This document shows, in pieces, positions 3,753 to 63,904 of a DNA stretch of 64,000 nt. The position numbers and the translations under genes were made by a program. Numbering within the stretch: the first letter of the stretch is position 1; every line of letters begins with the position of its first letter. The notes under the pieces are model-generated. The model searched no databases. It was not told where the DNA came from and was given only the letters and a program-made list of their open reading frames with translations. Source of the stretch: Petrosia ficiformis (lineage: Eukaryota; Porifera; Demospongiae; Haplosclerida; Petrosiidae). Location of the stretch: NCBI GenBank assembly GCA_947044365.1, contig OX345637.1:13548916-13612915 (forward strand). The letters are read 5' to 3'.

Positions 3753-4174
3753 CTTTTACTACGAGTTGACCCATATCACTGACTAGTTTTTGAGTTTTTC
3801 CAATAACAAAAACTACACACTTTATTTCAGTATTGTTGTATTGTGATAAGGCAGTTGCTGTTAGATTTCTTATTTGTGTTGTAGAGTCATAATTGACAAT
3901 TCCGAGTTGTAGGAAACCTTTGTCAATGATCTTTTGTTTACTGGCATAGGTATCATTCACAGTGTATAACAAAATGATAGAATCATCAGTACTGACAATA
4001 CAACTGAATTCCACTTTAGTACCATCCACAACAGTCATACTGTGTGGATGGCTCAGAAATTCTACAAAATAGACACAATGAATGAATGAGAGATTTACTG
4101 ACATATTAATTATGGTTATTACCTAGACTTTGAGCAAACACCATATGAAGAAAGAGTATTGCTAACAGCAACAT
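3753..4174 (-). pseudogene. Receptor gene A, 5' remnant: signal peptide plus Ig-like exon
   Basis: Exon 1 (4123-4174) starts at ATG 4172-4174 and encodes a signal peptide (MLLLAILFLHMVFAQSL) ending in phase 1 at a GT donor. Exon 2 (3753-4061) is a complete 309-bp phase 1-1 Ig-like exon with B-strand Cys (KVEFSC) and F-strand Cys (QYNNTEIKC), ending VVKG at a GT donor. No FN3, stalk or TM exon can be found on this strand towards position 1, where a MITE and the degenerate A-rich repeat now lie. The Ig is closest to that of gene B (both GF(L/M)QLGIVN), its head-to-head neighbour. It is probably a truncated partner of B. Alternatively the missing exons lie beyond the window, or it makes a short secreted product by reading into the intron. 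Confidence 0.7.
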
Positions 4175-4323
4175 GTCATCAGATCAGATATAAGGTTAGT
4201 TGCACCCACAAATTGGACAAGAAGCTTTAAAAAGACGTGGCAGATAACTGAGCATATATGCTGGGCAGATGACGTTATATTCTGGATTATCTACCAACAG
4301 ATTACAGATATATAGCCCACCAC

Positions 4324-5986: not shown

Positions 5987-7982
5987 ATGGATACAATTTT
6001 TTTTCATTCATAATAGCATTTTAATCCTATTGGGAATATTAGTTACAAGTATTTTGAGTTTTGGTAAGTACAATGTATTCTGCCAATCACATATATGTTT
6101 TCATATTTCGTTGAACATTGTCAGTATGATTCATTTTGTATTTCTAAATTATCATGATTGGTTTTCACTTGACATTTTTTAGAGAGTACAGTACTCTCTG
6201 TGTAGGGATAAGACGAAAAAATTAACACCCATGCATTTCAATTGCAAGTATTGAGTGGAATTCTCTGTTAATATCATTGAGATAAGTCTTAATACACACA
6301 TATCTTTTCATATCTAGTGTTTTGTGACTACCAACACTTAGATGGTATGCAGTTACATTAAAATCATAACCATTTTAAGAATTATAAAAACATTCTTGTA
6401 ATAATTTTAATAATGATTACTTAATTGGACGCCATACAATAATTATAATAGTTATACTATAATTATATAAGCATTGGATTGCCAAGTGGTTGACACAGTG
6501 ACTCCTACTGACTACATCCTGAGGACTGCAGACAATGCTGTAAGTGAAAGCGAAAATAACCATATTTGTAGATGAAAGAGAATGGTCATCAATAAACAAA
6601 AAAAAGACTGACCTTTGGTACTAAACAAGGCCTGCCTATTTATAATATTATGCACTAAAAATTGATGTGGGTGTGTGCAATTATGTTTTCATATAACAAC
6701 TCTACATAAGTACCTTCATGTATGTCACTAAAGTGGAAAAGACAAAGTAGATGTGCTTATGTAGGGTTATAAGGAAGTGGTTAGCATAATTTTGTTGCTG
6801 AGGTTCTGCTTTTTTTTGGGTTTTAAGTTTTTCACTTTTTGATAATGTTATTATTCTTGTATTATGGCATATAATACATTTGTGCATATATGTATGTTTG
6901 ACATAGTTAAGGAAATTATGTCATTACTAGGGGATTCATTATTTATTTTACATTCAGCACATTTAGTTTCTGACCACAATTCATATCTTAATCACTAGAA
7001 TTTCTGACTCATCCTAATAATATAACAGTTCTTCATGGTACTGAAGTGAATTTCAGTTGTGTTGCTATAGATTTTGATTTAATTTTCTTATTTGTGAATG
7101 ATACTCGTGCAGCAGAAAAAGGTGTTATGGATAAAGGTTTTATGCAACTTGGAATTGTCAATATCAACTCTACAACACTAATAAGAAATCTAACAGCAAC
7201 TGCATCAACACAATATAACAATACTGAAATACAATGTTATGCAATTAATAATAACAACACAGTACTACAATTCAGTGACACTGGTACACTCTTGGTACAA
7301 GGTAAATTATTATTAAGACCCATCTCCCTATACTAATGTAATATATTTTTACAGGTCCATTATCATCAGTTGTTGATATATCTCATTATTTCATTAATTC
7401 CTCAAGTCTCAATATCTCATGGAATCCACCATTCACTCTTCCTGGGACACATATCACTGGATATAACATATCAGTTACTAGTATCATGTTCAATATATCT
7501 CAGTTTATTACTGATACTTACTATGTGTTAACAGCTCCTAATAATACTGATCCATGTGATGAGATCAGTATAACAGTATCAGGTTATAATGGAGCAGGGA
7601 ATGGAGAAATGACTACTATATCATCACTATACTTCTCTAAAGGTGATAATAGTATTATTATACTGTGTGTGTGTGTATGTGTCTATTTATATATTGAGTG
7701 ATGTCTAAGTTTGCCATCAAAAACTACGATTATCTTGATATTGATTCAACCCTAACCATAACCCAACACAAATTGTAAAAACTAAACTGAAGATGGTCTC
7801 CTGTTTTGTCAATGATTAAGCTAGTATTTTGGATCATTTAGTTGTCATATAATAGTTATTCCTAATATTTATTACTGAGATCGAAAAAGGATATTAATGC
7901 CCAAAGAGCATGCAAACATAAGTACCTACATTGTACACTGCTGTGAATCTAACAAAGCATGCAAAGTACTGTGTTGATGTAT

Positions 7983-8029
<47 letters not shown>

Positions 8030-8687: not shown

Positions 8688-8746
<59 letters not shown>

Positions 8747-11700
8747 GTTTTGTTGATAAGTTCCATCAAATGCTTTTTTGGTTTTGACATTCTTTCCTCA
8801 TTTTTGTGGATGATTCTTACTTTATAGTTACTGTAATGGAAATTTACTTGTAAAAAGTAAAAACTATTAAACTAACATTATTATATTCTCTTTTCATGTC
8901 ATTTTTGTGGCCCACAGGGCTATCTCTATGATTGCTTTCCACAGGGTTTAATGTATGTAGAATAGATATATAAGATGCTTGTGTCAGATACACGAGTATG
9001 TATACGTAGTTAAGGAAGTTGCATCATTCTGGGTAGCTCGGTCAATTAATGGGTGTAGTGCATAATAAAATGCACAGATCTATACAGACTAGCAGGAAGA
9101 GAACTGCTTGCAGCAGCTATAGAAACTGGAACTTATAGCTGTTCTATATTTCTAAAGTTTTACAACATCCTTTAAAAATTAAGGAGAGTAGATAATCAAA
9201 GTAATATCTATATTAGGTTGGTACAACATGATTACTGGACACCACAAAGAAATCATAGGAATACTTGTTACTCTATATATCTTGGTAAAACTTTTAATAT
9301 TTTGTTTTTTACTTCAACAGTCCCTTCAGTTGATTCCAGTATACCAGTAACCATTCAACCAGTAGTCACTGGTAATGTGGTAGAAATAACAGTACATGTG
9401 AACGTAAGTAACAATTTTAATCAATATCATGCATGTTGGGAGAACATACTGTTTGTAATTTTGTACATGTATAGTACTGATATGAGAATACATGTACATG
9501 TATTATAATTATGTACTCTTAGAATTATATAATTATACTTATAAGAATAATTTTTAAAAAATTTTATAAAAATGAAAAATGTTGGTATATCAAAACCCAA
9601 AAAGTATGCAAGCAATATTGGGATGATGTTATCACAGGATGTAAACGCCTAAAACTGCTATAAAAGCAAGAGACAAAAAGCTATACTTTTGCATGGTTAT
9701 GTATTGAAGTGGTTTATTTAATTTTGGGTACTATGTTTACCTTCTATTCAGGGGCGTACCTAGACTTTGATTGATGGTATAACATACTCGGTGTGTAAAG
9801 CGCCCTGCGAAAATTTATAACTGTTATAATATATATAATTATGTTTTGTATAACTATGTTTAAAAATGATAAGCCACGTGCACTGTGCTACTTAAAAACA
9901 GGATAATTATGGAGAGGTATCCCTGTGATTACTTTGGCATTTACTAATCATTGCTGACTTTCTCATGCCTGAAGCACAACAGTCTATTATAACTATATAG
10001 TTATTGTTTTGATTATCAACTCTTACATTTTAAAGGATCTTGTGGAACTTTAGAAATTCAGATAGAATAGCTATTAGTTAATTCATATACAACATGTACA
10101 TGTATATGACAAGTATTATAAAAATTAATATTTCTATGGATATATATATATATATATATTATGTATATACACCCAGTAGAAAGCAATCATAGGGATGGCC
10201 CTGTAGGCATAAAAATTTTTAATTAGATTATAGCACTGTACGTGCTGTGCCACTTTAGTGGAGAACCTGGACCATAGCTGTTTTTAATGTTGTGTTATTT
10301 TAAAGGGAACATACAGCTGTATCTTGTGTGCTATCTCAAAATATCTATGCATATGATTTATATATTATCAGGATTCATGCATCTCTTAGGCTTCATCCTC
10401 AGGATCTAAATCCATTCTAGTAGATTTATATTATTAACCTATATTACCATGCTAAAAATTAATTTCTTACAAGCAATGCATGAGTTCTTCCTCATTCACC
10501 CTTAATGTCTGAACTGAACTGGGAGGCAAGATTCTGGCAAGTGAATACGACCCCTCCTCCACATGGAAACCCAGGTAATAGGCCACCATAATATCTAATA
10601 TAACAACCAACATGTTACCATGGTGACCGTATATTAGACCACAAGACATTATAAATAACACGTTACCATTAATGTCTGTTGTATGATGATACAAATGGCC
10701 ATGTGAGCCATAACAAGATATATAGAGAAAAAACTATCCCTATGATTGCTTTGTGGTGTCCATCATTCAGTAATCATGGCTGACTCTGATACACCACATA
10801 CTACTATAGTTATTATTTTGATTATCTACTTTTTAGGGTTCTTGTATAACTTTAGGAATGTATTGCACCTAGAACAGCTATTAGTCTACATAAAGCTACA
10901 AGCAGTGTTCTTCCTGCTGGCCTGTAGAGCTTGAGCACGCGTTCTATTATGCGTTCATTAGTTGCCTGACCCCATGGAATTATGTAACTTCCTTAACTAC
11001 ATATACAACTCATGCTAGCACAAGTGACACAAGCATATAAATATAAACACTTCAAACCCGTAGGAAAGCAATCATAGGGATGACCCTACGGGCCATAAAA
11101 ATGGCTGAATTAAATTTAATTATGACTGTTAGCATCATTTATTTTCTGATGTAGCTGAGAATTATTGCACATTACATTACATGTATTTCATTTAAAAGTA
11201 TTTTATGTGAAATCTTTGGAAAATGTTATACTACTAAGAGTACGCTAATACTAGTTGTATTAAAATGTATTTTTGTTATTTACTATAATATACTATATCC
11301 ACAGGTTAGTAAACTATGTCCTGGGGAATATCCCACTACTATTGATATATTGATTACTAATTCAACTGATGATACTACAATACAAAATATTAATGATGTA
11401 ATGTTAATGGAAGGATCACAAGATAATATACTCACTACTGTGGATAATATTACTCTTCAATCAGACATGATATATACTATACAAGTGTCGTTTAGTAATT
11501 TGGATGGAGAGTTTAATATTACTAGTAGTACTAACTTCAGTAAGTTCTCACTAGTCATGTCATTGTAATTATATTACATGTATAATAATTGTTACAGTAA
11601 TGATATTGTTAAACATGTGTTATACACTATACTAACTATTCTCAGCTAAGTGAAACAGAAAGATTATGATAGTTTCACAGTCGCCTTAAACTCTAGGAAA

Positions 11701-15696: not shown

Positions 15697-18600
15697 CATA
15701 CATACGTACATACATACGTACATACATACAAACATAGATACATACATACTAACATGCAAACTGATTGTGCAAAGCGACTGTGTTCATGCATGTATAAACA
15801 TACATATAATATTATTATAGTCATCAGGAATTGGTGTACTTCTATGCTTTCAAGAGTATCTCAAAGTTTACTCACTTTGCTGAAAAACTTACAAAGTGTA
15901 AAATAATAATAATTTTAATGTGAGTATTATAATCACCATGGTATTTAATAAAAGTAGGCGGTACAATTGTAGATACCATGGGAATATAATATTGCCAAAC
16001 ATTATACTTAAACACTATGAAAAACCAGGAACCTCTACAAATAGACAAATATCTATTACAGTCATGATTACTGAGTGTTGTATACCACAAAGCAATCATA
16101 GGGATAATTTTTTCTCTATATATCTTGGTATTTAAACTGTTTCATTTTTTTGTCTTTTGTCTTTCTTCATCCCTCATTGTGTGAAACTCAATATTAATTT
16201 GTTATACACTCATCCTTTGAAAATTAATTCCAATTTACAATTCATTCGTTTAGTTTTCAGAAGTTTTTTTCTGCCCATATGCATCACAAAACCCCGAGTC
16301 ACATGATTAGTTCTGTAAACCATTTAATGTCACCTCAAATACTACTACTATTTTACTATATCTCCTCGTCTTCTCTAGCAACATTTGACACTCAATCAAT
16401 TGATATAACTAGTACTAGTGGAGAAGTGTGTGTGGTGTGTAGATTCTCTATAAATACTACAGCAGTTGGTTGTGAAGTACACGTGTTACAAAATAACAAT
16501 ATCACACAATCAGAAAGGTTTAATAGAGATGTCAACAACATTGCTGAGGGTTGTGTATCAAATATTACTACTGGATATTATGACTTGTATGTATATGATG
16601 TTGAGAATGATAACATGCTGAGTCAATCACCAGCTATTATTAAGAATCAGGTTTTTGTAGATGAACAAGCAACAACATCATCAACAACAATGTCAACATC
16701 ATCATCTTCTATATCATCAATTTCCACAACATCAACAAGTTAGTTTCATTATTTTAATAACACTAAATATTATCTTATTATTTTCTTTTACAGCTAGTTC
16801 AACCGGCATGACTGTGTCACCAACAGGAGGGACAACTGAGGAATCTGAATGTAAGTTTTACTGACCAAAAAGAGCACTTGATTTTGATAATAATTATTTT
16901 AGTTAATTAACTAAATAAATTGACTGAATATAATTATTATGTTAAAGAACAGAGTTAGCTGTACTCTAACATATAATGCTCTTTCCTTTGATGATAATTG
17001 AATTCTAGTAAATCATTTCTGGTGTAATTAACACAACTTGTTTACATCTGTTAAAAATGTGAAAACATTCTTATCATTCACCAATATTCTATCGAAAATA
17101 AAGTACAGGTAGTAACCATGGTAACATAGTCTATATAATCATAAAAATTTAATGCAATTTTAGATTACGATTTTTCGATCATTTTTACACATTTCAAAAC
17201 TAATATCTAAGGCCAGCTGAGTATAGTAGTTGTTCTAATATAATGTGTAATATAAGACATTATTAATATTGATCATATATGTTGGTATTATACAATTTAA
17301 TATCTATAGTCAAAAATATGATATTGGACTTTTCTACTAACAGACTTTTGACTACAGCCATTAGTAGCTAAACCATTCATATATGAGAACACATACTGAC
17401 GTTTTGCAAACTTGATTTGACAATTATTTAATTAAGATACATATTACCTACATATATATAGTATAAATATATCTGTGCATATAATTATTGTTATTTCCAC
17501 AGTTCCTACCATCTATGTCATCATTGGTGTTGTTTTAGCAGTGGTAATAATTTGTGGGATAGTTGTCATTTTAATTTCTGGTCTACTTTACAATCGAAGA
17601 AATAAACCTAGTAAGTTAATAATTTCACAAGATGTATTGAGGAAAATGTATCCCTATCATAGTTTTCTGCCCAGAATATTTAGAGTGATGGTTGGATTGT
17701 AATTGGCTGTTTACCCAGTATATACTTAATACTATCTTAGTAGCCTACATGTGTATTATCTAAGAGGTGGTTAATTTATGCTGAGTTTTGGCTATTCCCC
17801 ACCAGTACCGATCAGGCAGACACTGCTATTAGTGGTAATGGTACAGGGGAGAGGCTTGAGCCCCCCTATAAGAAAATAGGGGGTTCAGTAATCCCCTATT
17901 TTGTCACTATATGCATTGTCACATCACTGTACTGTCACTAATGTGGCATGCAGTGCAAGTTGTGCAACAATTCATTAATGGGTTATTGTAACCATTATGT
18001 GTTTTCAATAATACCATGCATGCTTCTGAGACTATAATTATAAATCAATATTGATTTCCTCTAATACTAGATAATGTTTACAAGTAGTAATTTTGCTCTT
18101 AATCTATAGTGACTACTATATAAAGTATATGTAATAATAAATAATAGTAACAAAACTATATAATGTACTCAAACATGTAAATGTACATCTCATAGTAATT
18201 ATGTATATGTGCTAATTTCTCAAATATCAGTACATGCTTGTTGTTATAAGTACAAATTCATGTACATAATGAATGCACTCGCAGTGCAGAACCCTCGCCA
18301 CATGTGGGATTTGAGAAACAACTTGAGAATGATTCAGTCACTGACCAAAAAATAACTGCAGACAATAATTGACTGAAATAATAATTATTACAATTTACTC
18401 TATACTGAGATTATATTATATTTGAAACAGAAAGGTTTTAGCAAAAGCCTGTTGTTACTTTTGATACTTGTATGATATGACGTCTGCTAGTAGTATTTTC
18501 AACTTGCCAATGTTTGTAGGTTCGCTGGAATTTTGCTGACAGACAAACAGACAAAAAAAATTACAGTAACCCTCCACTCCACCTACGCGGGTGAAGGTTA

Positions 18601-19458
18601 ATTACCCTAGTTTATTCTAGACTTCTCTAATATCAGTACATCGGATGTTATTTGCTATTATAAGTACAGATTCATGTAGATGATTATGCTGGAATAAGCA
18701 TGTAACATAAATTGTGTTCAGAGATGTTAGTATGGGAATGATAATAATATGCCACAGGATATACCTACATATATAATTATAATCTATGCTGTTATACATT
18801 ATTGTTACTATGCTTTATTATGACATGTACTTTATATACTAGTCAAAGATCAAATGTAACTAGTACTTGTAAATATTAGCTACCTAGCAGGAAAAACAAA
18901 TTAGCATTGAGGAATTACATTGAAACTCCTCTAGCCACCTGAAGGTTAAAATAATCCATTACTTTTTACAACGAACTTAACACATTTCTTTTGTGGTCAA
19001 TTAGATCCTCTCTGAGCAACATTTGGGAGCATTACTTTTTAGCTTCTGTGTTTCACAGAAAAGGGGACACACCCCCTCCTGCACCCTCTCCCTGGCAGCT
19101 GTAATGTAGCCACCATCGTCGTGTCCCCATTTTAATTATATTCATGATGGATGTGGTTAATTATATTAATTGGTTTTGTTGTTGATTAAAGTTTATATAT
19201 CACAAAAATCACCACATGTGACACTGCACGAAATTTAGGTTGTCTGAGACTTGTTTTCACTAGTCGTCTATACAAAATCTGAATCCAATAACAATATTCA
19301 TTTTATTTTACAAATTTATGAAATATTATATTATATTTACTGATAATTTATCATCAATAGATGCTGAGAAAAAATTGCCACCAAATTCCAATGCCAGTTC
19401 AAAGAATGGAGTAGCTAGTCAGAAATCATCAACTAAACCTAATATGAGTTCCAAATAA
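5987..19458 (+). CDS. Receptor gene B: Ig-FN3 type I membrane protein with short basic tail
   Basis: Nine exons read by GT-AG borders and phase: 5987-6063, 6999-7301, 7355-7642, 9321-9403, 11305-11539, 16379-16738, 16794-16850, 17503-17610, 19361-19458. Order: putative signal peptide; Ig-like domain (VNFSC ... YNNTEIQC); FN3 (LNISWNPPF ... YNISVTS ... ITVSGYNGAGNG); third beta-sandwich over two exons (VPSVDSSIPVTIQP ... LCPGEYPTTIDILIT); small Cys domain (VCVVCRF, VGCEV, EGC); Ser/Thr-rich stalk; TM (PTIYVIIGVVLAVVIICGIV); a tail of about 40 residues rich in Lys/Ser/Asn without tyrosine motifs. It is rich in N-x-S/T sites, so an extracellular glycoprotein. The ATG at 5987 is in frame with the exon 1 donor only if the T8 run (about 5997-6004) has seven T, otherwise exon 1 is broken. 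With that base discounted the model is 535 aa. Introns hold MITEs and a LINE. Ligand unknown. Confidence 0.72.
6064..6998 (+). other. Intron 1 of gene B
   Basis: Donor GTAAGT at 6064, acceptor AG at 6997-6998. AT-rich. No coding or repeat structure recognised apart from short AT runs; the open frames on the minus strand here are unsupported. Confidence 0.5.
8038..8297. repeat. Nested inverted repeats, hairpin-type MITE
   Basis: Two adjacent palindromes. First: TAGTATGCTAACAGGTCCTAT at the left pairs with AGGATCTATTAGCATATTA at about 8166-8188, with an inner pair GATGTGATATAGCC / GGCTATATCACATCC. Second: TATGATGGTGACATC at about 8202 pairs with GATGTCACCATCATA at about 8281-8295. Such foldback structure is typical of hairpin MITEs. 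Confidence 0.65.
8693..8744. repeat. (TA)n microsatellite
   Basis: About 25 uninterrupted TA units inside intron 3 of gene B. The short open frames crossing it on both strands are low-complexity artefacts. Confidence 0.9.
8909..9264 (+). mobile_element. MITE family M1, full copy
   Basis: Begins GGCCCACAGGGCTATC...ATGATTGCTTTCC and ends CACCACAAAGAAATCATAGGAATAC, same orientation and internal landmarks as 3152-3530. It ends 56 bp before an exon of gene B. Confidence 0.8.
9919..10210 (-). mobile_element. MITE family M1, reverse diverged copy
   Basis: Starts TATCCCTGTGATTACTTTGG and ends AAAGCAATCATAGGGATGGCC, the reverse orientation of 3152-3530, with a shorter and more diverged centre. Lies in intron 4 of gene B (9404-11304). 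Confidence 0.65.
10735..11095 (-). mobile_element. MITE family M1, reverse full copy
   Basis: Starts TATCCCTATGATTGCTTTGTG and ends AGCAATCATAGGGATGACCC-TACGGGCC, in reverse orientation. It shows the family's internal landmarks (GCTTGAGCACGCGTTCTATT and TAACTTCCTTAACTACATAT in this orientation). Lies in intron 4 of gene B. Confidence 0.8.
12521..12620 (+). repeat. About 100-bp direct repeat, copy 1
   Basis: Contains ACTGACTCCCAACTGAATG, GCAGACCTCT-like and AAGCTTCAGTGGTACGAGTA strings. It recurs at 13036-13134 with few differences, separated by microsatellite DNA. Confidence 0.75.
13036..13134 (+). repeat. About 100-bp direct repeat, copy 2
   Basis: Partner of 12521-12620 in the same orientation; both end ATCTGACATTTACT. 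Confidence 0.75.
13683..15370 (+). pseudogene. LINE-type retrotransposon ORF relic (endonuclease, partial RT, zinc finger)
   Basis: Begins at ATG 13683 with an APE-type endonuclease N terminus (WYLASWNV, then a TGA, then LLETARQSE ... VTALQKTKWFG). Further endonuclease segments appear in shifting frames (IRFGGHDEDCLDVFSCYAL, NTWFQKWPIHKATWQHPG, TDHQMLRVKL). From about 14890 comes the RT entry region (PPTVEELKEAIDKLKSGKA, DAVLVPIPKKGELKICDNWR), which stops near 15190. Soon after, about 15285-15360 encodes a C-terminal zinc-finger-like piece (VKCNTCKIWFHSKGGLSVHV). The RT core with its catalytic YxDD is missing, so this is an internally deleted, frameshifted copy. It sits in intron 5 of gene B in the sense direction and is absent from the homologous intron of gene D. 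Confidence 0.78.
15460..15755. repeat. (TA)n and (CATA)n microsatellite at the LINE 3' end
   Basis: (TA)n at 15460-15482 is followed by about 200 bp of CATA/TACA tetranucleotide repeats. Tracts like this often mark LINE 3' ends. The Tyr/Ile/His/Thr-rich open frames in every phase here are artefacts of the repeat. Confidence 0.9.
16851..17502 (+). other. Intron 7 of gene B
   Basis: Separates the stalk exon from the TM exon. Parts such as CTTGTTTACATCTGTTAA and AGTAACCATGGTAACATA recur in the equivalent intron of gene D (about 45240-45265, 45805-45835). No coding signal. Confidence 0.55.
18857..19187 (+). repeat. About 330-bp direct repeat in the last intron of gene B, copy 1
   Basis: Recurs at 20229-20574 in the same orientation with moderate divergence (shared AGCTACCTAGCAGGAAAAA and AGCTTCTGTGTTTCACAGAA-AAGGGGACACAC). 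The two copies flank the last coding exon of gene B and its 3' end. Confidence 0.75.
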
Positions 19459-22723: not shown

Positions 22724-25060
22724 TTAAGTCTCATAAACAGTAGTAGTAGTAGTTGTCTGTTGTACAGTCTCATAAACAGGAGTAGTTGTTTCTTGTACAG
22801 TCTCATAAACAGGAGTAGTTATTTGTTGTACTGTCCCATAAACAGGATTATTAATCTCTATGGAGTGGATATCTTCATAAGCTGGATTGTTGTTAAGTAG
22901 TACTTTAAAACTTCTTTCACTGGATATTATATTGTTACTTAGATCGTCATAAGCAGGATTAGTTTGTACTAATAGTGGTTGACCTAAGGGAATAGAATTT
23001 GTTTATATGCAGTTAACAACACTTTAGTGTTCATCCAACAGACATTCAATAAAGCATATATGTTTATGTACAACTTGGGAAAAATAAGTATGCATTTAAT
23101 ATTATATGTATAACCTGATTGTTGATGGTATCTTGCACAGGTGCAGACAACAATAGTGAATCCTATCAAAATCAATACAAATACTCCAATACTAGTAGTA
23201 GTGATTATGATGATAGTACTGTTAATGATAGCTTCAGAATTTGAAATCACTGCATGTAATAAAAACTAAATGAATAATGAATGTAATATAAATCGTCCAC
23301 ACTAACTGGAAGATGGCAGTAATATGTAAGAGGTTTTAATCAACATGGTTGATGCTGTGATTGACATGGCTGAGATTGAAAGTGATGTTATTATTAATGT
23401 TGTTGATGTTTGTTCATCTACAAACACTTGATTCTTAATAATAGCTGGTAATTGACTCAGTGTGTTATCATTCTCAACATCATATATATACAAGTCATAA
23501 TATCCAGTAATAATATTTGATATACAACCCTCAGCAATGTTGACATCTCTATTAAACCTCAATGACCATGTAATATTGTTATTTCGTAACAACTGTGTTT
23601 CACAACCAACTGCAGTAGTATTTATAGAGAATCTACATACCACACACACTTCTCCACTAGTACTAGTTATATCAATTGATTGAGTGTCAAATGTTGCTAC
23701 AGAGAGTAGTTAATATTTAAACAAGTATATTGAATGGTACATCACTTACTAAAATTAACACCAGGATTAATACTAAACTGTCCATCCAAAATCACTTGTG
23801 CAGTATATATCATGTCTGATTGAAGAGTAATAGTATCCACAGTAGTGAGTATATTATCTTGTGATCCTTTCATTAACATTATACCAGTGAAAGTAGTATC
23901 ATCAGTTGAATTAGTAATCAATATATCAATAGTAGTGGGATATTCACTAGGACATAGTTCACTAACCTATATATATATATATATAATATATATATAATAT
24001 TATAATAATTATATAATCATGCTCGTATATAGTATGTAGCAACAACTTTCATACTTACATTTATAAACACTGTTATTGATACCATATTGAGAACAACTGC
24101 TGTCAGCTCAATGGATATTGGTATGTTAGAATCAGCTAAAGGAGCTATTAGAACTATTAACTTAAAATGACTGTATTCTAATAATTTATAGAATTGCATA
24201 ATAATCAACACATAGTGTACTGTTCAGGTTAATGTTCATACAATATACAATTGTGCATTATATACAATGAGTATAATACTTACTTTTCTGAAAGTATAGT
24301 GATGATATAGTACTTATTTTGCCATTCCCTGCTCCATTATAACCTGATACTGTTATACTGATCTCATCACATGGATCAGTATTATTAGGAGCTGTTAACA
24401 CATAGTAAGTATCAGTAATAAACTGAGATATATTGAACATGATACTAGTAACTGATATGTTATATCCAGTGATATATGTTTCAGGAAGAGTGAATGGTGG
24501 ATTCCATGATATATTGAGACTTGACAAATCGATAAAATAATGAGATATAACACCAACTGATGATAATGGACCTGTGTAGAAATGATCAGCATAATTATTA
24601 CTAGAATGTAGTAATTAATTTACCTTGAACTAATAGTACAGCTACTTCACTAAATTTATAAATAGGCGTCTGACCATCAGTATTCAAACCTCTACACTTC
24701 ACTTTAGTATTATTGTATTGTGATGATGCAGTTGCTGTTAGATTTAATCTCAGCGTTGTAGCATTCAAAAAATCAAATGTAGATTCAATGAAACCTGCTT
24801 GAATAATATCTGGTTGATTTGTAGCAGTTCCATTAACAAAATAGTTAATTTCTTTAGCAATAACTACACAACTGAATTGAACTGTTGCACCATCCACTGC
24901 ATTTTCTGAGTCAGGATCATCAATTATAACTGTAAATAGTAACAAGTGTATTTAGTATAATTATATATACATTTATTATATATATATATATACCTGGAGT
25001 TTCAGCTAGCACTGATAAAATATGGAGGATAGTGACAATCAACAAGATTACTGCATACAT
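22724..25060 (-). CDS. Receptor gene C: Ig-FN3 membrane protein with tyrosine-motif tail
   Basis: Eight exons, in transcription order: 24994-25060, 24624-24929, 24284-24571, 24059-24135, 23750-23966, 23307-23696, 23115-23249, 22724-22983; 579 codons plus stop. Domains: signal peptide (MYAVILLIVTILHILSVLA); Ig-like (VQFSC ... YNNTKVKC, no C-strand Trp); FN3 (LNISWNPPF ... GYNGAGNG); third beta-sandwich (DSNIPISIELTAVV ... LCPSEYPTTIDILIT); Cys domain (VCVVCRF, VGCET, EGC) with Ser/Thr/Ile stalk; TM (about IIIITTTSIGVFVLILIGFT); tail of about 95 residues. The tail has NPAYDDL, NPAYEDI, NPVYGTV, TPVYETV twice and a final VYET. The last three YxxV are spaced by exactly seven residues. NPxY and YxxV/I/L are known PTB- and SH2-docking motifs, so a phosphotyrosine-signalling receptor is inferred. 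Introns are compact (49-148 bp). Ligand unknown. Confidence 0.88.
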
Positions 25061-37100: not shown

Positions 37101-37110
37101 CTAAAACAGA

Positions 37111-49232: not shown

Positions 49233-50847
49233 TTAATAATTAATTACAGTCTCATAAACAGGAGTAGTTGTTTGTTGTACATTCTCATAAACAGGAATAG
49301 CTATTTGTTGTACAGTCTCATAAACAGGAGTATTAGTTTTTATGGAGTGGATATCTTGATAAGCTGGATTCTTGTTAAGTAGTACTCTATGATTAAAACT
49401 TCTTTCATTGGCTATTATAGTGTTAGTAATATCTCTTGAATCAGCATAAGCAGGATTAGTCTTTACTGATAGTGATTGTCCTGAGAGAATAGTATTTGTT
49501 TATGTACAGTCAATAACACTTTAGTATTCATCCAACAGGCATTCAACAATGCATGACATAATAAAACATGTATACATATTATTATAATTATGTATTAACC
49601 TGATTTTTTGGGGAAAGTTGTACAGACTATCACCACAACAATAGTGAATCCTACTAATCCCAATATAAACACACCAATTGTAATAGCAGTGATTACAATG
49701 ATAGTGTTATCTTGAGTTGTTGCAACTTTAGCATTTGTATAGCATGTAATAGAAACTAAATGAATAATGAATGTAAAAATAATGGTCCATACTTACTGGA
49801 AGTTGGCGATAATAATGTGTGAGAGGTTGCAATGAATGTGGTTGATGTAGCAGTTGACATCATTGAAGTTGTAATCAACATGGTTGATACTGTGATTGAT
49901 GTGGCTGAGATTGAAAGTGATGTTATAATTAACATTGGTGTTGTTTGTTCATCTACAAACACGTGATTCTTAATAATAGCTGGTAATTGACTCAGTGTGT
50001 TATCATTCTCAACATCATATACATACAAGTCATAATATCCAGTAATAATATTTGATATACAACCCTCAGAAATGTTGGCATCTCTTTTAAACCTCATTGA
50101 CCATGTAATATGGTTATTTTGTAACAACTGTATTTCACAACCAACTGCTATAGTATTTATAGAGAATCTACACACTGCACATACTTCTCCACTAGTACTA
50201 GTTATATCAATTGATTGTGTGTCAAATGTTGCTATAGAACATACTTATTAATTACAACAATTATATTGAATGGTACATCACTTACTAAAATTAACACCAG
50301 AATTAATACTAAACTGTCCATCCAAAATTACTTGTGCAGTATATTTAATGTCTGATTGAAGAGTAATATTATCCACAGTAGTGAGTATATTATCTTGTGA
50401 TCCTTCCGTTAACATTACATCAGTGAAAGTGGTATCATCAGTTGAATCAGTAATCAATATATCAATAGTAGTGGGATATTCACCAGGACATAGTTCACTA
50501 ACCTATATTGTATTCATAAATGTATATAACAACAACTTTTATACTTACATTTATAAACACTGTTATTGATACTATATTGAGAACAACTGCTATCAGCTCA
50601 ATGGATATTGGTATGCTAGAATCAGCTAAAGGAAATTAAAAAAATCTATTAACTCAAAATGACTATAATTATATATATTTTGCATAATAATCAACACATC
50701 ATTCAGTATATGATTGTACATATATGCAATGACTTGCTAGTGGTTTTCACAGACACATACATACACATACAAATTTAAATATTATTATAATATATATATA
50801 TATATATATAAATATATATATATAATATATATAATATATAACTATAC

Positions 50848-50881
<34 letters not shown>

Positions 50882-51701
50882 TATATATATATAATATATA
50901 TATATATATACACAATATATATACCTTTAGGAAAGTATAGTGAGGATATAATAGTAATTTCCCCCTGTCCTGCTCCATTGTAAGCTGATACTGTTATACT
51001 GATCTCATCACATGGATCAGTATTATTAGGAACTGTTAACACATAGTAAGTATCAGTAATAAACTGAGATATATTGAACATGATACTAGTAACTGATATG
51101 TTATATCCAGTGATATGTGTCCCAGGAAGAGTGAATGGTGGATTCCATGAGATATTGAGACTTGAGGAATTAATAAAATTATGAGATATATCACCAATTG
51201 ATGATAATGGACCTGTAAGAATATATAACATTAGTATAGGGAGATGGGTCTTACTAATAATTTACCTTGTACCAAGAGTGTACCATTGTCACTCATTGGT
51301 TGGTCTGGATTTCCAAATTCAATAGCTACACATTGTATTTTAGTATTATTATATTGTGTTAATGCAGTTGCTGTTAGATTTCTTATTTGTGTTGTAGGGT
51401 TGATATTATCAATTCCAAGCTCTATGAAACCTTTATCAATGATATTTTGTTCATTTGCAGTAGTACCATTCACAAGATATAAAATAAGGATTGGATCTGA
51501 ATCTACAGTAAAACAACTGAACTCCACTTCAGTACCATGAACAACAGTTATATTGTCAGGATGAGTCAGAAATTCTATAATGGAATAGACACAACGAGTG
51601 GAGCGGATATATAATTTTTATGGTGATTCATAATATATATAATACTTATTACCTAGACTTTGAGCAAACCCCAGAAGAAACATATGGAGTGCTAACTGCA
51701 T
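49233..51701 (-). CDS. Receptor gene E: Ig-FN3 membrane protein with tyrosine-motif tail
   Basis: Eight exons in transcription order: 51653-51701, 51266-51574, 50925-51212, 50549-50625, 50286-50502, 49797-50231, 49600-49725, 49233-49480; 582 codons plus stop. Domains: short signal peptide (MQLALHMFLLGFAQSL); Ig-like (VEFSC ... YNNTKIQC); FN3; third beta-sandwich (DSSIPISIELIAVV ... LCPGEYPTTIDILIT); Cys domain (VCAVCRF, VGCEI, EGC); long Thr/Ser/Met stalk; TM (IIVITAITIGVFILGLVGFT); tail with NPAYADS, NPAYQDI, TPVYETV, IPVYENV, TPVYETV and a final NY. The YxxV motifs are again separated by exactly seven residues. It matches gene C exon for exon, also in its 3' flank, so C and E are the same lineage. 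The TM exon acceptor (TAAAG at 49726-49727) is less canonical than its counterpart in C. An intracellular phosphotyrosine-docking role is inferred. Confidence 0.87.
50786..50912. repeat. TA-rich tract in intron 3 of gene E
   Basis: Long imperfect TA runs directly before the donor side of the FN3 exon. No coding content. Confidence 0.85.
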
Positions 51702-52487: not shown

Positions 52488-55400
52488 ATGTCATTATTTA
52501 GGTCAGTGATTATCTGTTTTATACTTTCATGTTGTATAGTGATCACAGGGAGTCTTGGTGAGTATATGTTATATATATAGCACTTGTGAGTTGTGATCTC
52601 TTGTTGAGTATGTGTAATTACCCTCGCCGCGTAGCGTAGGCGGAAGGGTACGGTAATCGTTTTGTCTGTGTGTCTGTGTGTCTGTGTATCTGTGTGTCTG
52701 TGTGTGTGTGTGTGTTAGCAATTTTTCTTGAAAAATAAAAACATTGACATTTCAAAAGGGGTACCGGTAAACTTCAAATTATATAAGGAAAAAAAATAAC
52801 GTAGGAATTCTTCTAAAACCTTTTGGTTCTAATGTTATGACAATTTTTATAACTCACAGTTACCGTTTCACGACTTTAAGATGAAACGAGGGCAATAACG
52901 AGAGTAAATATGGACACACAAAACACAAGTGATCCTCTTGCATGGCTGTCGCTAGCTAAGAAACACTTCAAACCACCAAAACAACGAGGTAATGGTTGCT
53001 TCTGCTTCACCATTGATGCAAGATAGAGAGCTACCTAGCTCCACCTACATGCAGGTATGTGCACGTACGTGCATGCTTGCATACTAAGCACGTGGTAGAG
53101 GTGATTCGTTTTCACATGGGGACTTTAGAGGTAGACTTGAGAACTTTTCGAAGGAAAACACAGAATAAGATGTGAGATATATATACAGATTATACATTTC
53201 ATTCATTGATATTCTTATTTTGTCTTTTAGGATATAAAGTTATAGTTTTAATTAATGCCCATAAATGTTTTCAAATCATTTATATTTCTATTCCATGTAA
53301 CAAAAGTATTGTTTGTTTCATACACTTTATTATATATATATTTTAAATGGAATGCTTTGTATTACTTTGCCACGTAGGCGAGGGTCCCGTCCCGACGGCG
53401 CTCGTTACTTAATGTGGTACAATTATCATTTCATAAAGCAGCTCAAAACACTGTATATAGTTATAATGGCTTCTTATAATGATAACATATCCTATGTACA
53501 TGTAGTACATGTTGACAGCGCTCACCATTTCACAATTTCTGCATCACACCTTCCTTCAGATGTACATTGTGTAAAACATGATTTACTTTCTGTACTTAAA
53601 AATGTATTATCTGTTCAGCTATAAATTGATGTATGATCTTATATGTGATCTCATTTGGTTTTCTTAATGGTTTTGTTAATCAATACCTGAGTTCAGAAAG
53701 TTCTCATGAATACCACCTGTAGGTGACATGACAATCACCTGTAGGTCACATGACTATCACATGTAAGTCTCATGAATACCACTTGTAGGTGACATGACAA
53801 TCACCTGTAGGTCACATGACTATCACATGTAGGTCTCATGAATACCACTTGGTACCTTTATTTTTGTTATATATTTTACATCATTCTAAATAGTAGCTCA
53901 TTTTATCATCAGTACCTGATAAGTCAAGCTACCATACTTTCATAATTATGGCCGTATGATTGCTTTCCCACGGGTTCAATGTATGTTTATAACTATATAT
54001 ATTTTCTTGTGTCACTTTCAATTAATTGGCGTGGCGCATAATAGAATGCATGCTCAAGCTCTACAGACAGTAGTACAGAGCAGCAGAAAAAAAGCTTATG
54101 TAGAAACTGGAACTAATAGCTAGCTATTCTTCCTGAAATATATTTCTAAAGTTCTAGAAGGTCCTTAAAAGGTAAGAAGAGTAGATAATCAAAATAATAA
54201 CTATAATAGGCTGTTGTGTTTCAGGCATGATGAAGTCAGCCATGATTACTGAATGCGGGACACCATAAGGGATACTTTTTTCTCTATATACACTTGTTTC
54301 AAACATGTAATATACTCTTCTGGGATTGTGCATTCAATTCAGTGATATACATGTACAAATAAGGCAGGGTTAATAAGTGTACACTAACTAAGTACATGAG
54401 TTGACACATTCCAGTTACAAGAAATACACTTCTTTGAAAGTATTGTAATAAAACTAGACACTCTAGCCAAGTAATTATATAATATAATTTTTAGTTATCT
54501 AAGTTAATTATAGTATCATACATAAAGCCTGTTACCCTTCATCTTGAGTGTAATAATTTTTTTTCATTTAGTATTTCTGACTCAACCTGACAATAAAACT
54601 GTTGTTCATGGCAGTGAAGTGGAGTTCAGTTGTGTTGCTAAAGATTCTGATTCAATCAATTATATTGTGAATGGTACTCATGCAGATGATCAAAGTATTA
54701 TTGATAAAGGTTTCATACAACTTGGATCTGAAAATATTGACCCAACAACAAGAAGAAGAAATCTAACAGCAACTGCATTAACACAATATAACAATACTGA
54801 AATACAATGTTTAGCTATTGATACTGGAAATGCCAAACAACTAATTAGTGATATTGGTGTACTCTTGGTACAAGGTAAATTATTATTAAGACCCATCTCC
54901 CTATACATGTACTAATGTAATATAATATTCTTACAGGTCTATTATCATCAGTTGGTGATATATCTTATTATTTTATTAATTCCTTAAGTCTCAATATCTC
55001 ATGGAATCCACCATTCACTCTTCCTGGGACACATATCACTGGATATAACATATCAGTTACTAGTATCATGTTCAATATATCTCAGTTTATTACTGATACT
55101 TACTATGTGTTAACAGCTCCTAATAATACTGATCCATGTGATGAGATCAATATAACAGTATCAGGTTATAATGGAGCAGGGAATGGAGAAATGACTACTA
55201 TATCATCACTGTGTTTTCCATCAGGTGACCACAATGTAATATATTTGTATAGTGTCATGTACATGTACATGTACCCTAAATGTTCTAACCCATTGTAGCT
55301 GTTCTGTGGCTTTCTAAGTCTTCGCGGTATTTTATTAAATTATTTATTAAATTGATATAATATATATATATTATATATATATTATATATATGTGTGTATC

Positions 55401-61400: not shown

Positions 61401-63904
61401 GTATGTATGTTAAGAATACTAGTGTTATTACATGTATATGTACATGTGTACATGAGCATTAATAAATGTAATATGCAATATTGTACTCTGTTGTAGAGCC
61501 TGAAGCATAGAAATACATGTATTTAGACATCATAGATTACTATACAGTTTCCATACTATCACTGTACTTCCATTGACTACTGTGTACACTGTACTACAGA
61601 TGTACATGTACTACACAGTATTACACCTTAGTACTATGCTATCACGTACAAATGTAAAGGGAATTCACACATTACTATGATTACAGTACAAAGTAGTACT
61701 TAGAGGTACAGTTGACCATATTAATGTATAGCTCCCATCATAGTATGTAAACTTAATAAATTCAGGTACTGTATAACACATACTTCAATATCATCATTAC
61801 TACCATAACATCTTCTGTACATGTAGTAACTTATAATAATCGATCAACTGATATAACAAGTACTAGTGGAGAAGTAGTTATAGATGAACAAACAAAAACA
61901 GCAACAAGAAATGTACAACCAACAATATCATTAACACCTTCTGTAGCACTGGTATCACCTTCTGTACTATTAACAAGTGAGTATTGTAATTATAAATCAT
62001 GTTTTAATAATACATGTATAATTATTATGGTTTCATTTGGCATGTACGTTTCTTTATTAGCAAGTGGTACATCTATTGTCACAACAGAAGGACCGACCTT
62101 AGAACCTCCGGAATGTAAGTAATCAATATTATATAATCAGTCACAGGAGATTATTTATCTCTTAGACATTTTCTGAATAACTAGATTATTTCATGTTTAA
62201 TAATACTGCACTCACTGGCATAGTCAGGTCTATCATCAAATCTATTATGATACATATTGATGAAGTGTATTAAAACTCTTTGCTAGTAATGTTTGTGAGT
62301 TTCAGCATGCTTCACTAATATGTATGTATCTTGATGTGTGACTGACTATGCTTTGTTAGAAATCATGTTTTTAGGAAAGTCAATAATTTACAAGTAATCC
62401 ATCAAGTAACGAAAATTTCATTTCATGAAAACTCAACTGCACAACAATAATCTTTATTGAACATTTAATTATTACTAGATTTTTTATGTTCCACATGGGC
62501 CATCCTATGGATGGAAAGGATAAAGTGTGTGTCCAATGTCCATATACCTTAAAGTCTACTGTTAATTTTGTCCAAATATGGAGATTTTTTAAACATTGGA
62601 TTTACATGTACAATTAAGCATTCAATAATGTTAGTGAATTTCTGAGTCATGCCTAATACATGTATGTCTAATAAAATGATCACAAAATACATTTTTTAGC
62701 ACATACTAATTTTAGCATTACTCACTAAAATCAATAAAAAGTTTCTACACTCAATTATAAACAGGTTTAATGTCCATTGTATATGTACAAATTATACGAT
62801 TATTAATTTTGTTTGTGTCAAAACATGTTTTGTATCAAATTAAGATCCAGTGGCAACAGCATAGAAAGGAAGTACTCAATTATGATTTACTGTGTGTATA
62901 GATTTTCAGATATCTATATTATTATCTCTGCAGATCCTCCTATCTATGTCATCATTGTACCATGTATTGTTGGTGTATTAGTAATACCTGTTCTGCTCAT
63001 TCCAAGTATACTTTTTACTTATTACAAATGTAAACATACTAAAGAAAGTAAGTTATTAATAGAACAAATTATAATTCTGTTAATACGCTTCTTCTTGTAG
63101 GACCCAGACTAAGACAGTCATCAGTAGAAAGTGGAACAGTAAGTTTTTTTGTTTAAATAAAAGCAGCTTGTAAAATGTTTATTTTATGAGTCACCAACCT
63201 CACCCTTCTGTTATCGGATTAATGTAGTTTGTACATGTATGTATCTATATGTCATTGTCCAAGTTGAAAATGTTTTTCTACAAAACGTTGCACAAATCAC
63301 AAAGATTATTAGCTTAAGGTTTCATAGTAAACTGTTTCAAATTGTTAATTTTGCTTAAATTAACTTGTATATGTGAGATGATTGAGGTCAATAATGACCT
63401 CAATGGCAAAACATTTGGGTAGAAAGTTAGAAAAACCAGCAGGGGTTGGCACCAAGTGTTTTTCAAATCCTACAAATGACCCTTTTTTTTATTATAGAGT
63501 GGTAATCCTTCTGATACATGTACCTATTCAATGTCTCTGACTGCACTGACTACTTCTGATCAGGTAGATAAATATATTCTTATACATATCTTCATTTCGT
63601 TGTTTTAAAAGATATAATAATCAGGGTTTGAGCTAGAAATATTTTGAATTAAATATTCATTGTGGGTGTGGTCAATTATTAACCATTTTTAATTAAAAAT
63701 TTATAGGACAAACATGATCAAGCCTACATACATGGTTTTCTACAGTCTTTTCTGAAGTTTGGACAGCCATCTATAAAGGCATTCTTCTTAGACTTTGTAC
63801 AGAGCATATTTTATTCACTTGGTCTTCAATCTAGCCAAGACAATTCTTCCAGCCATCTGGGAACACATTTTTTTTACCATTGTATAACTTACACTGTCTT
63901 CTGA
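52488..63904 (+). CDS. Receptor gene F: shortened Ig-FN3 membrane protein with a distinct tail
   Basis: Exons: 52488-52557, 54572-54874, 54937-55224, 61827-61976, 62061-62114, 62934-63047, 63101-63138, 63498-63563, 63707-63904; 426 codons plus stop. Signal peptide (MSLFRSVIICFILSCCIVIT); Ig-like (VEFSC ... YNNTEIQC), closest to gene E; FN3. The two exons of the third beta-sandwich are absent: a 5.7-kb minisatellite fills that intron. Since the lost pair is phase 1-1 overall, the frame stays open into a sixth-type exon that also lacks the Cys domain (TSTSGEVVIDEQTKTAT). Then a stalk (EGPTLEPPE), TM (PPIYVIIVPCIVGVLVIPVL) and a tail of about 110 residues unlike any other copy (RPRLRQSSVESGT, SDTCTYSMSLTALTTSD, HDQAYIHGFLQSFLKFG). 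No YxxV array. The last exon is the least certain; an alternative 3' end beyond the window is possible. Confidence 0.75.
52617..53405. other. Intron 1 of gene F, GC-richer repeat-like inserts
   Basis: Begins TACCCTCGCCGCGTAGCGTA and near its end has CCACGTAGGCGAGGGTCCCG, opposite-facing GC-rich motifs similar to the hairpin ends of the TIR elements elsewhere in the window. Possibly one decayed element of about 0.8 kb. TSD not found. Confidence 0.4.
53702..53851. repeat. 66-bp tandem repeat, about 2.3 units
   Basis: Units start TCTCATGAATACCAC at 53702, 53768 and 53834. Each contains GTAGGTGACATGACAATC and GTAGGTCACATGACTATC, so the unit is itself made of two related halves. Lies in intron 1 of gene F. 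Confidence 0.88.
53950..54275 (+). mobile_element. MITE family M1, full copy
   Basis: Starts GGCCGTATGATTGCTTTCCC and ends GACACCATAAGGGATAC, same orientation and internal landmarks as the copies at 3152 and 8909. It lies in intron 1 of gene F. Confidence 0.75.
55225..55731 (+). other. Start of intron 3 of gene F before the minisatellite
   Basis: AT-rich with a (TA)n tract at about 55355-55390. I searched it for the exon 4 signature (GTTGATTCCAGTATACC in B and D) and found none. Confidence 0.55.
55732..61451. repeat. 5.7-kb minisatellite of 47-bp units
   Basis: About 120 head-to-tail units. The unit is TTAAGAATACTAGTGTTATT followed by ACATGTATATGTACATGT and GTATGTATG. The period of 47 bp was checked between successive TTAAGAATAC starts (56040, 56087, 56134). 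Variants are GTGTTATT/GTATTATT, ACTAGTG/ACTTGTG and ATGTATG/ATGTGTG/ATGTCTG endings. A rarer unit, CTGTTAAGAATGCTACATG, appears near 55991, 56834, 57092, 57937, 59109 and 60421. Part of each unit can form a hairpin (ACATGTA-TATG-TACATGT). It is not coding: 47 is not a multiple of three. Confidence 0.97.
62115..62933 (+). other. Intron between stalk and TM exons of gene F
   Basis: Position-equivalent to intron 7 of B and D. A remnant resembling the MITE M1 end (CATGGGCCATCCTATGGATGG) is at about 62494. The open frame starting at 62813 joins intron sequence to the real TM exon at 62934. Confidence 0.5.

What the first reader, a model, noticed from the sequence alone, without database searches (positions are those of the whole stretch)
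3753..63904. Three head-to-head pairs of related Ig-FN3 receptors: a candidate paired-receptor locus
Seen: six homologous genes arranged A(-)B(+), C(-)D(+), E(-)F(+), with start codons facing away from each other in every pair and 3' ends converging between pairs. The complete minus genes (C, E) share one stalk/TM/tail module and the plus genes (B, D, F) another, so strand and module type go together. Known: clustered receptors with shared ectodomains and different signalling tails are typical of vertebrate paired immune receptors and of Hydractinia Alr allorecognition genes. Inference: a repeatedly duplicated divergent pair, perhaps for self/non-self or ligand sensing in a sponge-like animal.
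Basis: partly seen in the sequence, partly recalled or inferred. Interest (0 to 1): 0.88.

Follow-up and report, generated by a model that had tools for sequence, protein, structure and literature searches.

The report
Sponge paired-type receptor gene complex
The window is a small piece of a two-million-base cluster of cell-surface receptor genes in a sponge; neighbouring genes that point away from each other tend to share the same recognition domain but often carry different tails, which makes the cluster a candidate for a sponge self/non-self or microbe recognition system.

Summary
The window is chromosome 2:13.549-13.613 Mb of Petrosia ficiformis (identified by sizes). Its genes belong to a family with at least 85 FN3-exon places at 13.22-15.18 Mb of that chromosome; one further copy is on C1. 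Head-to-head neighbours share an Ig subgroup in 10 of 12 pairs, tail-to-tail neighbours in 2 of 9. The adjoining FN3 exon is homogenised (dS 0.10 against 0.58 for Ig). Two tail classes exist: Tyr-rich NPxY tails with YxxV repeats at ITAM-like spacing, mostly on minus, and long Pro-rich tails with an ITIM-like motif, mostly on plus; both recur in Amphimedon. This is the layout of paired receptors, with no sequence kinship to a known paired family found. Against it: tandem neighbours predominate and are as alike as head-to-head ones, head-to-head is not enriched, only one partner carries a proven Pro-rich tail, and B and D have short tails without either motif. Ligand, sign of signal, expression and polymorphism are untested; allorecognition remains a hypothesis.

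The parts
3754..4062 (-). Gene A, Ig exon (rest of gene left of window)
   Evidence: Ig tree places it beside A'
4124..4174 (-). Gene A, signal-peptide-like exon, 61 nt upstream of Ig
   Evidence: hydrophobicity and splice site only
6998..7300 (+). Gene B, Ig exon
7354..7641 (+). Gene B, first FN3 exon (FN3a)
9320..9403 (+). Gene B, FN3b part 1
11305..11541 (+). Gene B, FN3b part 2
16378..16738 (+). Gene B, stalk-domain exon (STK) with Ser/Thr-rich end
16796..16849 (+). Gene B, second stalk exon
17502..17609 (+). Gene B, transmembrane exon of the P class
19360..19458 (+). Gene B, short tail exon without Tyr
24995..25060 (-). Gene C, signal-peptide-like exon
24625..24930 (-). Gene C, Ig exon
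24285..24572 (-). Gene C, FN3a exon
24059..24136 (-). Gene C, FN3b part 1
23748..23966 (-). Gene C, FN3b part 2
23410..23697 (-). Gene C, stalk domain (STK)
23116..23250 (-). Gene C, transmembrane exon of the Y class
22727..22984 (-). Gene C, Tyr-rich tail: 3 NPxY, 5 Yxx[ILV]
40345..40410 (+). Gene D, signal-peptide-like exon
40461..40760 (+). Gene D, Ig exon
40813..41100 (+). Gene D, FN3a exon
41654..41737 (+). Gene D, FN3b part 1
42664..42891 (+). Gene D, FN3b part 2
46068..46185 (+). Gene D, transmembrane exon of the P class
46240..46421 (+). Gene D, two short tail exons and the intron between them, without NPxY or ITIM
   Evidence: read by eye
51267..51575 (-). Gene E, Ig exon
50926..51213 (-). 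Gene E, FN3a exon
50549..50626 (-). Gene E, FN3b part 1
50284..50502 (-). Gene E, FN3b part 2
49945..50232 (-). Gene E, stalk domain (STK)
49601..49711 (-). Gene E, transmembrane exon of the Y class
49236..49481 (-). Gene E, Tyr-rich tail: 2 NPxY, YxxV at spacing 7
52488..52556 (+). Gene F, signal-peptide-like exon (2 kb upstream of Ig)
54574..54873 (+). Gene F, Ig exon
54936..55224 (+). Gene F, FN3a exon
61827..61976 (+). Gene F, stalk-domain remnant (internal deletion)
62934..63047 (+). Gene F, transmembrane exon of the P class
63101..63904 (+). Gene F, tail exons and introns, the first resembling the start of the P-class tail
   Evidence: read by eye; tentative

Best explanation
The window is a sample of a large, fast-evolving complex of single-pass receptors (signal peptide, variable Ig, homogenised FN3, second FN3-like unit, stalk domain, TM, tail) that works in the manner of paired receptors. 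Shown by sequence: a family concentrated in one 2-Mb cluster; Ig subgroup shared by most head-to-head partners; FN3a nearly uniform across genes; FN3b and TM/tail modules sorted largely by strand; two tail classes found in two sponge genera. Inferred: gene conversion between facing 5' ends keeps partner ectodomains alike, so both bind the same or related ligand, while 3' modules keep two outputs apart. Class Y tails (NPxY plus YxxV repeats 7 apart, ITAM-like) would recruit SH2/PTB proteins and activate; class P tails (one ITIM-like V-x-Y-x-x-L/I, Pro-rich, often PPxY) would restrain, or couple to the cytoskeleton. Partners with short tails (B, D) would act as non-signalling competitors or use an adaptor. 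Ligands are probably cell-surface markers of sponge cells or microbes.
For: At least 85 FN3a places at C2 13.22-15.18 Mb. Head-to-head Ig identity mean 0.748 (12 pairs) against 0.499 for tail-to-tail (9), Mann-Whitney p=0.005; same subgroup 10 of 12 against 2 of 9, Fisher p=0.009 (subgroups assigned by me). Partners are reciprocal best Ig matches in 4 of 12; C/D (97/88), 15055170m/15073315p (99/95) and 14436033m/14439682p (99/96) are sisters in the Ig tree. Mosaic: Ig within pair 68%, elsewhere 48% (4 pairs); FN3a about 91% everywhere; FN3b2 within pair 72.5% (3 pairs, F has none), same strand 86.9%. dS 0.58 Ig against 0.10 FN3a in the same 53 genes, lowest in the middle of the exon. Tail class and strand: Y against P, Fisher p=0.0003. 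Y tails: 9 of 9 read have Yxx[ILV]x7Yxx[ILV], none an ITIM; 9 of 10 P tails tested have an ITIM-like motif. Both classes match Amphimedon tails by profile (hhalign E 7e-5, probability 62%; E 1e-6, 90%); cross-class E 0.3, reversed controls E 0.05 and 0.6 (members chosen by me by motif). Ig fold: pLDDT 86, top PDB matches Ig entries. SH2 domains occur in the genome (63 matches).
Against: Tandem neighbours share Ig as much (mean 0.698, median 0.784 against head-to-head median 0.745; p=0.29), so likeness of head-to-head partners may simply be recent duplication. Head-to-head is 13 of 68 adjacencies, below the quarter expected by chance. Of the 13 pairs, have exactly one Y tail, 1 both, 2 neither, 1 is unclear; strand margins alone predict about 8 of 12 (my arithmetic). 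Only one partner (14584188p) has a proven P tail; B, D, F have the P-class TM; the other partners are unassigned. Two pairs (13332422m/13341816p, 13424928m/13437249p) have different Igs; A'/B and E/F are not each other's closest. In pair 14286861m/14289904p both FN3a exons hold a stop. The stalk domain does not follow strand clearly (same strand 90.5%, one within-pair value 88.5%). B and D have no signalling motif. Strict ITAM is met in 0 of 9 Y tails. No expression, ligand or polymorphism data; duplication makes the tests non-independent.
Confidence: 0.52

Rival explanations
1. An ordinary tandem and inverted duplication cluster of adhesion molecules. Head-to-head pairs are by-products of palindromic duplication and carry no pairing logic; strand-tail linkage is inherited from one founder block.
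For: Tandem neighbours are as alike as head-to-head ones (p=0.29) and more frequent; tail complementarity within pairs is hardly better than strand linkage predicts; transposon ORFs and exon fragments are seen.
Against: Two tail classes with distinct Tyr motifs recur in Petrosia and Amphimedon; Ig and FN3b have separate histories in the best-read pairs; most fetched copies are open (FN3a stops in 3 of 75 units).
Confidence: 0.32
2. Microbe-sensing immune receptors: the pairs balance responses to bacteria or symbionts, as proposed for Siglec-11/16, rather than to other sponges. (This differs from the best explanation only in the ligand.)
For: Siglec-11/16, head-to-head and kept alike by conversion, are linked to bacterial recognition (PMC5701461, abstract and passages); Petrosia hosts a dense microbiome (recalled).
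Against: No microbial ligand or induction data were available; nothing here separates it from allorecognition.
Confidence: 0.35
3. Mostly decaying pseudogenes with few working genes.
For: Missing exons in F, stalk remnants in D and F, solitary exons, internal stops in some copies.
Against: dN/dS below 1 in Ig (0.54-0.95) and FN3a (0.59-0.89) by subgroup and 56 of 76 units with an open Ig exon of 285 nt or more; an ENA sequence that looks like a transcript joins stalk, TM and P tail.
Confidence: 0.12

Closest known systems
Vertebrate paired receptors, in particular SIGLEC11/SIGLEC16 (head-to-head, about 9 kb apart, ectodomains kept alike by gene conversion; PMC5701461, abstract and passages)
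   Same: Head-to-head orientation at several kb, shared ectodomain, different tails, signs of conversion.
   Different: No kinship seen; dozens of genes rather than one pair; here FN3a is homogenised across the family while Ig varies; sign of signal unknown; short-tailed partners B and D show no charged TM residue by eye.
Botryllus fuhc-linked FF/FcoR receptors (PMC12065747, passages)
   Same: Ig-superfamily receptors in a cluster, neighbours forming cognate pairs, ITIM, hemITAM and YxxI/L/V tails.
   Different: FcoR has sushi and several Ig domains and fester genes have no signalling domain; pairing there rests on expression and polymorphism, here on sequence only.
Hydractinia allorecognition complex, Alr genes (PMC11067881, passages)
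   Same: Cluster of single-pass IgSF receptors (at least 41 loci) with many likely pseudogenes; ITIM/ITAM motifs reported for candidate genes (PMC12065747, passage).
   Different: No row named as cnidarian among the homologues listed; no polymorphism or fusion data here; head-to-head two-tail logic not described for Alr as far as I recall.
Amphimedon queenslandica 'fibronectin type-III domain-containing' proteins (most of P0003-P0048)
   Same: Same family (P0003 has the same domain order) and the same two kinds of tail.
   Different: Uncharacterised by name; gene order and orientation not available to me.

Membership tests
Paired receptors (functional class) | Partners with homologous ectodomains | tested here: met
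   10 of 12 head-to-head pairs share Ig subgroup; 2 of 12 do not
Paired receptors (functional class) | Linked genes | tested here: met
   Facing neighbours; Ig-to-Ig gap about 2-3 kb in five pairs (A-B by A's window Ig), up to 17 kb in others
Paired receptors (functional class) | Opposite signalling tails (ITIM against ITAM or adaptor) | tested here: inconclusive
   Two tail classes, but only one head-to-head pair with Y and proven P tail (14573491m/14584188p); strict ITAM 0 of 9; B and D short tails; sign not testable by sequence
Paired receptors (functional class) | Co-expression and common ligand | not testable with these tools
   No RNA or binding data for this genome here
Hydractinia Alr family | Sequence homology to Alr | tested here: inconclusive
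Hydractinia Alr family | Alleles decide fusion or rejection | not testable with these tools
   One assembly, no crosses
Sponge aggregation factor family | Calx-beta/Wreath domains (recalled) | tested here: not met
   Pfam scan of the joined C model to E 1 listed neither
Sponge Ig-domain receptor tyrosine kinases | Cytoplasmic kinase domain (recalled) | tested here: not met
   No kinase hit in the C model or in P0001
Immunoglobulin superfamily | Ig fold | tested here: met
   AlphaFold model of E Ig pLDDT 86.3; the 50 PDB rows shown are, by title, entries with Ig domains, best E 1.2e-5; Pfam Ig_3 only below cut-off
Fibronectin type III | Pfam fn3 above cut-off | tested here: met
   D FN3a 27.7 bits, cut-off 25; not listed in the full C model; stalk domain only weakly FN3/Ig-like

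The most novel reading that the evidence does not exclude
This is the histocompatibility complex of a demosponge: a multigene allorecognition locus in which facing Y-tail and P-tail receptors share a polymorphic Ig domain and weigh activating against inhibitory signals from contact with other sponges, with the FN3 domain kept constant by conversion so that any two members can pair in cis.
Probability: 0.2. Interest if true: 0.95.

Novelty: new variant of a known kind. Interest (0 to 1): 0.78.

Why it matters
Sponges discriminate self from non-self, but a 2025 review says that in sponges, cnidarians and ascidians the candidate allorecognition proteins are not conserved and the mechanisms a mystery (PMC12065747, passage). 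A chromosomal complex of variable Ig receptors with two recurring, motif-bearing tail classes gives a concrete, mappable candidate in the phylum and would carry the two-tail receptor logic to sponges. The listings of my paper searches (only the top rows were shown and I read no more than passages) showed no title or abstract start describing this cluster; most subscription papers and preprints are not held.

Tried and rejected
Pfam alone misses the Ig (below cut-off) and lists no FN3 in the full C model; structure and single-exon scans settled it. A short TM query found 6 places, a second 14 and a Y-class TM query 7: too short to sort all genes. Single-sequence phmmer listed no Amphimedon protein for a Petrosia P or Y tail; profile comparison did. 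Conserved promoter between partners: the self-comparison of the window showed no shared intergenic block beyond what look like repeats; not tested cluster-wide. Tails of 14616180p and 15073315p: the letters fetched held no TM or tail that I could see; left unassigned. In one search the 'strict ITAM' of L091/L092 and 'LLYFVL' of L093 come from letters before the exon and are not counted; 'VSYTHL' in P0001 lies in what looks like adapter sequence (recalled) and is not counted; P0014 has no ITIM; the row for L089 failed (its tail holds VVYAKL by eye) and L090 was not read.

Rows left out before counting: one search scored 150 of 239 candidates, so 85 is a lower bound; of its 121 matches I used 85 (75% identity or more), the rest being shorter pieces, distant relatives and one C1 copy. 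Ten short fragments of the 85 were left out of the adjacency count (75 used). Of 135 stalk matches 73 in the cluster were used, one exon being present as two overlapping pieces. Of 64 Y-tail matches 60 were used; the strand count (46 minus, 10 plus) is for 13.3-15.2 Mb and leaves out four plus-strand Y tails at 13.22-13.25 Mb. Of 30 P-tail matches 19 were used, the rest being second pieces or juxtamembrane bits. dN/dS used 53 genes with both exons open.
Full report
What and where. The window's own assembly (G000) has 191,215,263 bases; contig C2 is 15,999,405 bases and C12 is 6,113,113. The Petrosia ficiformis assembly odPetFici3.1 has 191.25 Mb with chromosome 2 of 16.0 and chromosome 12 of 6.11 Mb (PMC12648040, passages). 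The window is therefore chr2:13,548,916-13,612,915 of this demosponge; identification is by size, not by name.

The six genes. Homologous exons were placed by tblastn with exons of B and C and their flanks printed. The order is signal peptide, Ig, FN3a, FN3b in two exons, a stalk domain (STK), in plus genes a second stalk exon, TM, tail. Most introns at domain borders that I read are phase 1. C has all parts; E has all but a signal-peptide exon. A continues left of the window as a gene with the same FN3a, FN3b, STK, TM and Tyr-rich tail (13541510-13543663). B has all but a convincing signal peptide; its tail exon of 32 residues has no Tyr. D has a stalk remnant and a short tail. F has no FN3b, a stalk remnant, a 5.7-kb array of a 47-bp repeat in that interval, and tail exons of which the first resembles the beginning of the P-class tail (by eye).

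Fold. The Ig exon of E, with five other window copies as alignment, gave a model of mean pLDDT 86.3 whose best PDB matches are Ig domains (E 1.2e-5). FN3a of D passes the Pfam fn3 cut-off, and the FN3a profile finds titin (E 2.6e-6) and NCAM2 (E 0.0014) FN3 chains. The stalk domain is a beta-sandwich at low confidence (pLDDT 69.8, no PDB match at E 0.001).

The cluster. FN3a as query gave 121 matches at E 0.01, 150 of 239 candidates having been scored. The 85 places that I took over into the map, at 75% identity or more, lie on C2 at 13.22-15.18 Mb. One copy is elsewhere: C1:28.106 Mb (FN3a 66%, FN3b2 84%). All 135 stalk matches are on C2, with weaker relatives (about 26-44% identity) at 7.4-7.6, 10.4-11.4 and 13.0-13.5 Mb. 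I fetched Ig+FN3a for 60 places and had 15 from larger blocks, plus the solitary A Ig: 76 units. FN3a has an internal stop in 3 of 75; two of these three are the head-to-head partners 14286861m and 14289904p.

Partners share Ig. Among 68 adjacencies of the 75 units closer than 60 kb there are 13 head-to-head, 13 tail-to-tail and 42 tandem ones. Random strands would give about 17, 17 and 34, so head-to-head is not enriched. The stretch 13.42-13.60 Mb, which holds the window, is an exception: ten successive units alternate minus/plus, fragments left aside. Ig identity is 0.748 on average for 12 head-to-head pairs (median 0.745), 0.499 for 9 tail-to-tail pairs (median 0.436) and 0.698 for 21 tandem ones (median 0.784); head-to-head exceeds tail-to-tail (p=0.005) and not tandem (p=0.29). 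Ten of 12 head-to-head pairs are of one Ig subgroup, two of 9 tail-to-tail pairs are (p=0.009; subgroups assigned by me and the tree, whose own header warns of few columns). Partners are reciprocal best matches in 4 of 12. In the window C/D are sisters; A' pairs with the A Ig and E/F are not sisters.

Mosaic genes. For four pairs with long sequence (13492m/13499p, A'/B, C/D, E/F) Ig identity is 68% within pairs and 48% otherwise. FN3a averages about 91% in all kinds of comparison. FN3b2 (three pairs, F having none) is 72.5% within pairs, 86.9% between genes of the same strand and 74.0% between strands of other pairs. For STK only A'/B can be compared (88.5%), against 90.5% on the same strand. 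So the 5' exon follows the pair and FN3b the strand, while STK says little. In 53 genes with both exons open, synonymous divergence is 0.58 for Ig and 0.10 for FN3a, though the exons are some 50 bp apart. Within FN3a it is lowest in the middle. B and D are 40% identical in Ig and share 97.6% of letters over FN3a. Recurrent gene conversion of FN3a is the simplest reading; I ran no formal conversion test. In Ig, pN/pS is 1.25, 0.93 and 1.54 in the F-G hairpin for three subgroups and 0.93, 0.79 and 3.33 in the segment before the C strand; this suggests a binding edge under diversifying selection, without a significance test. Over whole exons dN/dS is below 1.

Two tail classes. Class Y is the tail exon of C and E. 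The second class came to light through an ENA sequence (P0001, 73% identity over the aligned 17% of the query), which runs from the stalk domain through a TM into a long Pro-rich tail. That tail has 19 places in the cluster, 16 plus and 3 minus; Y tails between 13.3 and 15.2 Mb number 46 minus and 10 plus, with four more on plus at 13.22-13.25 Mb. Assigning to each of 73 stalk exons the next tail downstream: minus 35 Y, 2 P, 4 none; plus 9 Y, 9 P, 14 none; Y against P p=0.0003, Y against the rest p=8e-7. These p-values ignore that neighbours are duplicates. The TM of B, D and F is of the class found before P tails. Of 13 head-to-head pairs, 9 have exactly one Y tail, 1 has two (14006580m/14012861p), 2 none and 1 (14138265m/14154368p) is unclear; one partner, 14584188p, has a proven P tail, three (B, D, F) the P-class TM, and the rest are unassigned.

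Motifs. All 9 Y tails that I read (of 60 mapped) have at least two Yxx[ILV] spaced 7 residues apart, the spacing of an ITAM, but the strict ITAM pattern is met in none; they have 2 or 3 NPxY and no ITIM. Of 10 P tails tested (4 Petrosia loci, P0001, 5 Amphimedon), 9 have an ITIM-like motif such as VVYSKL or VEYADI. Petrosia P tails also have NPxY with YxDL, YDDV mostly within PPxY, and Pro-rich stretches. Motif names are recalled.

Conservation. The Amphimedon protein P0003 has the same domain order, and 42 of the 45 other proteins listed with it are named Amphimedon, some matching only in part. Six Amphimedon proteins show an NxAY...NPxY tail after a TM (the pattern occurs in 8 of 55 proteins held), and four have the ordered P-tail triple motif (7 of 55 in all; 0 of 14,000 shuffled C-terminal halves). 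Profile comparison joins Petrosia and Amphimedon P tails (E 7e-5, probability 62%) and Y tails (E 1e-6, 90%), while cross-class comparisons (E 0.3) and reversed controls (E 0.05 and 0.6) do not; the members were chosen by me after seeing the motifs. The dichotomy is therefore probably older than the split of these genera.

Mechanism. Shown: shared ectodomain subgroup, near-constant FN3a, two recurring tails. Inferred: conversion across facing 5' ends; common ligand; opposite or complementary output through SH2/PTB and SH3/WW readers. SH2 domains are plentiful in the genome (63 matches, at two places two of them close together). In the window itself, pairs combine a Y receptor with a short-tailed or reduced P-class receptor, so there the second gene may be a decoy. 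Whether the ligand is a sponge marker or a microbe cannot be told.

Known systems. SIGLEC11/16 are the closest in layout, Botryllus FF/FcoR the closest in being neighbouring pairs with ITIM/hemITAM tails in an allorecognition locus, Hydractinia Alr in being a large IgSF cluster. No kinship to them was seen in the searches made, which reach close relatives only. Sponge candidates so far are aggregation factors (recalled; cited in PMC12065747), which have other domains.

Verdict. On rechecking I lowered the main confidence slightly (0.55 to 0.52), the novel-case odds (0.22 to 0.20) and interest (0.80 to 0.78), because only one pair has proven Y and P tails.

Noticed in passing
window 34466-38695 (-): DIRS-like retroelement between C and D: tyrosine-recombinase-like ORF (phage integrase just below cut-off), reverse transcriptase ORF and a CCHC-knuckle ORF.
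   Followed up: partly
window 25307-25732 (+): hAT transposase dimerisation domain upstream of gene C.
   Followed up: partly
window 55729-61450: 47-bp minisatellite, about 123 copies with strong GC skew, in the interval where gene F lacks its FN3b exons.
   Followed up: no
G000 C12:0.17-1.07, 1.8-2.4 Mb: A second large concentration of FN3 exons, over the Pfam cut-off, on chromosome 12.
   Followed up: no
G000 C2:7.4-7.6, 10.4-11.4, 12.7-13.5 Mb: Older relatives of FN3a and the stalk exon (about 26-44% identity) strung along the same chromosome.
   Followed up: no
G000 C1:28105711-28106610 (-): A lone copy outside chromosome 2: FN3a 66% and FN3b2 84% identical.
   Followed up: no
G000 C2:14280552-14290658 and 14612622-14623042: Apparent inverted duplicate of a three-gene block; the Y tail is on plus in one copy and minus in the other.
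   Followed up: partly
G000 C2:13341866(+), 13397183(+): Plus genes with a third kind of TM segment, tails not resolved.
   Followed up: no
window 3754-4174 and C2:13543352-13543663: Gene A may have two Ig exons 9 kb apart, only the outer one with a signal-peptide-like exon.
   Followed up: partly
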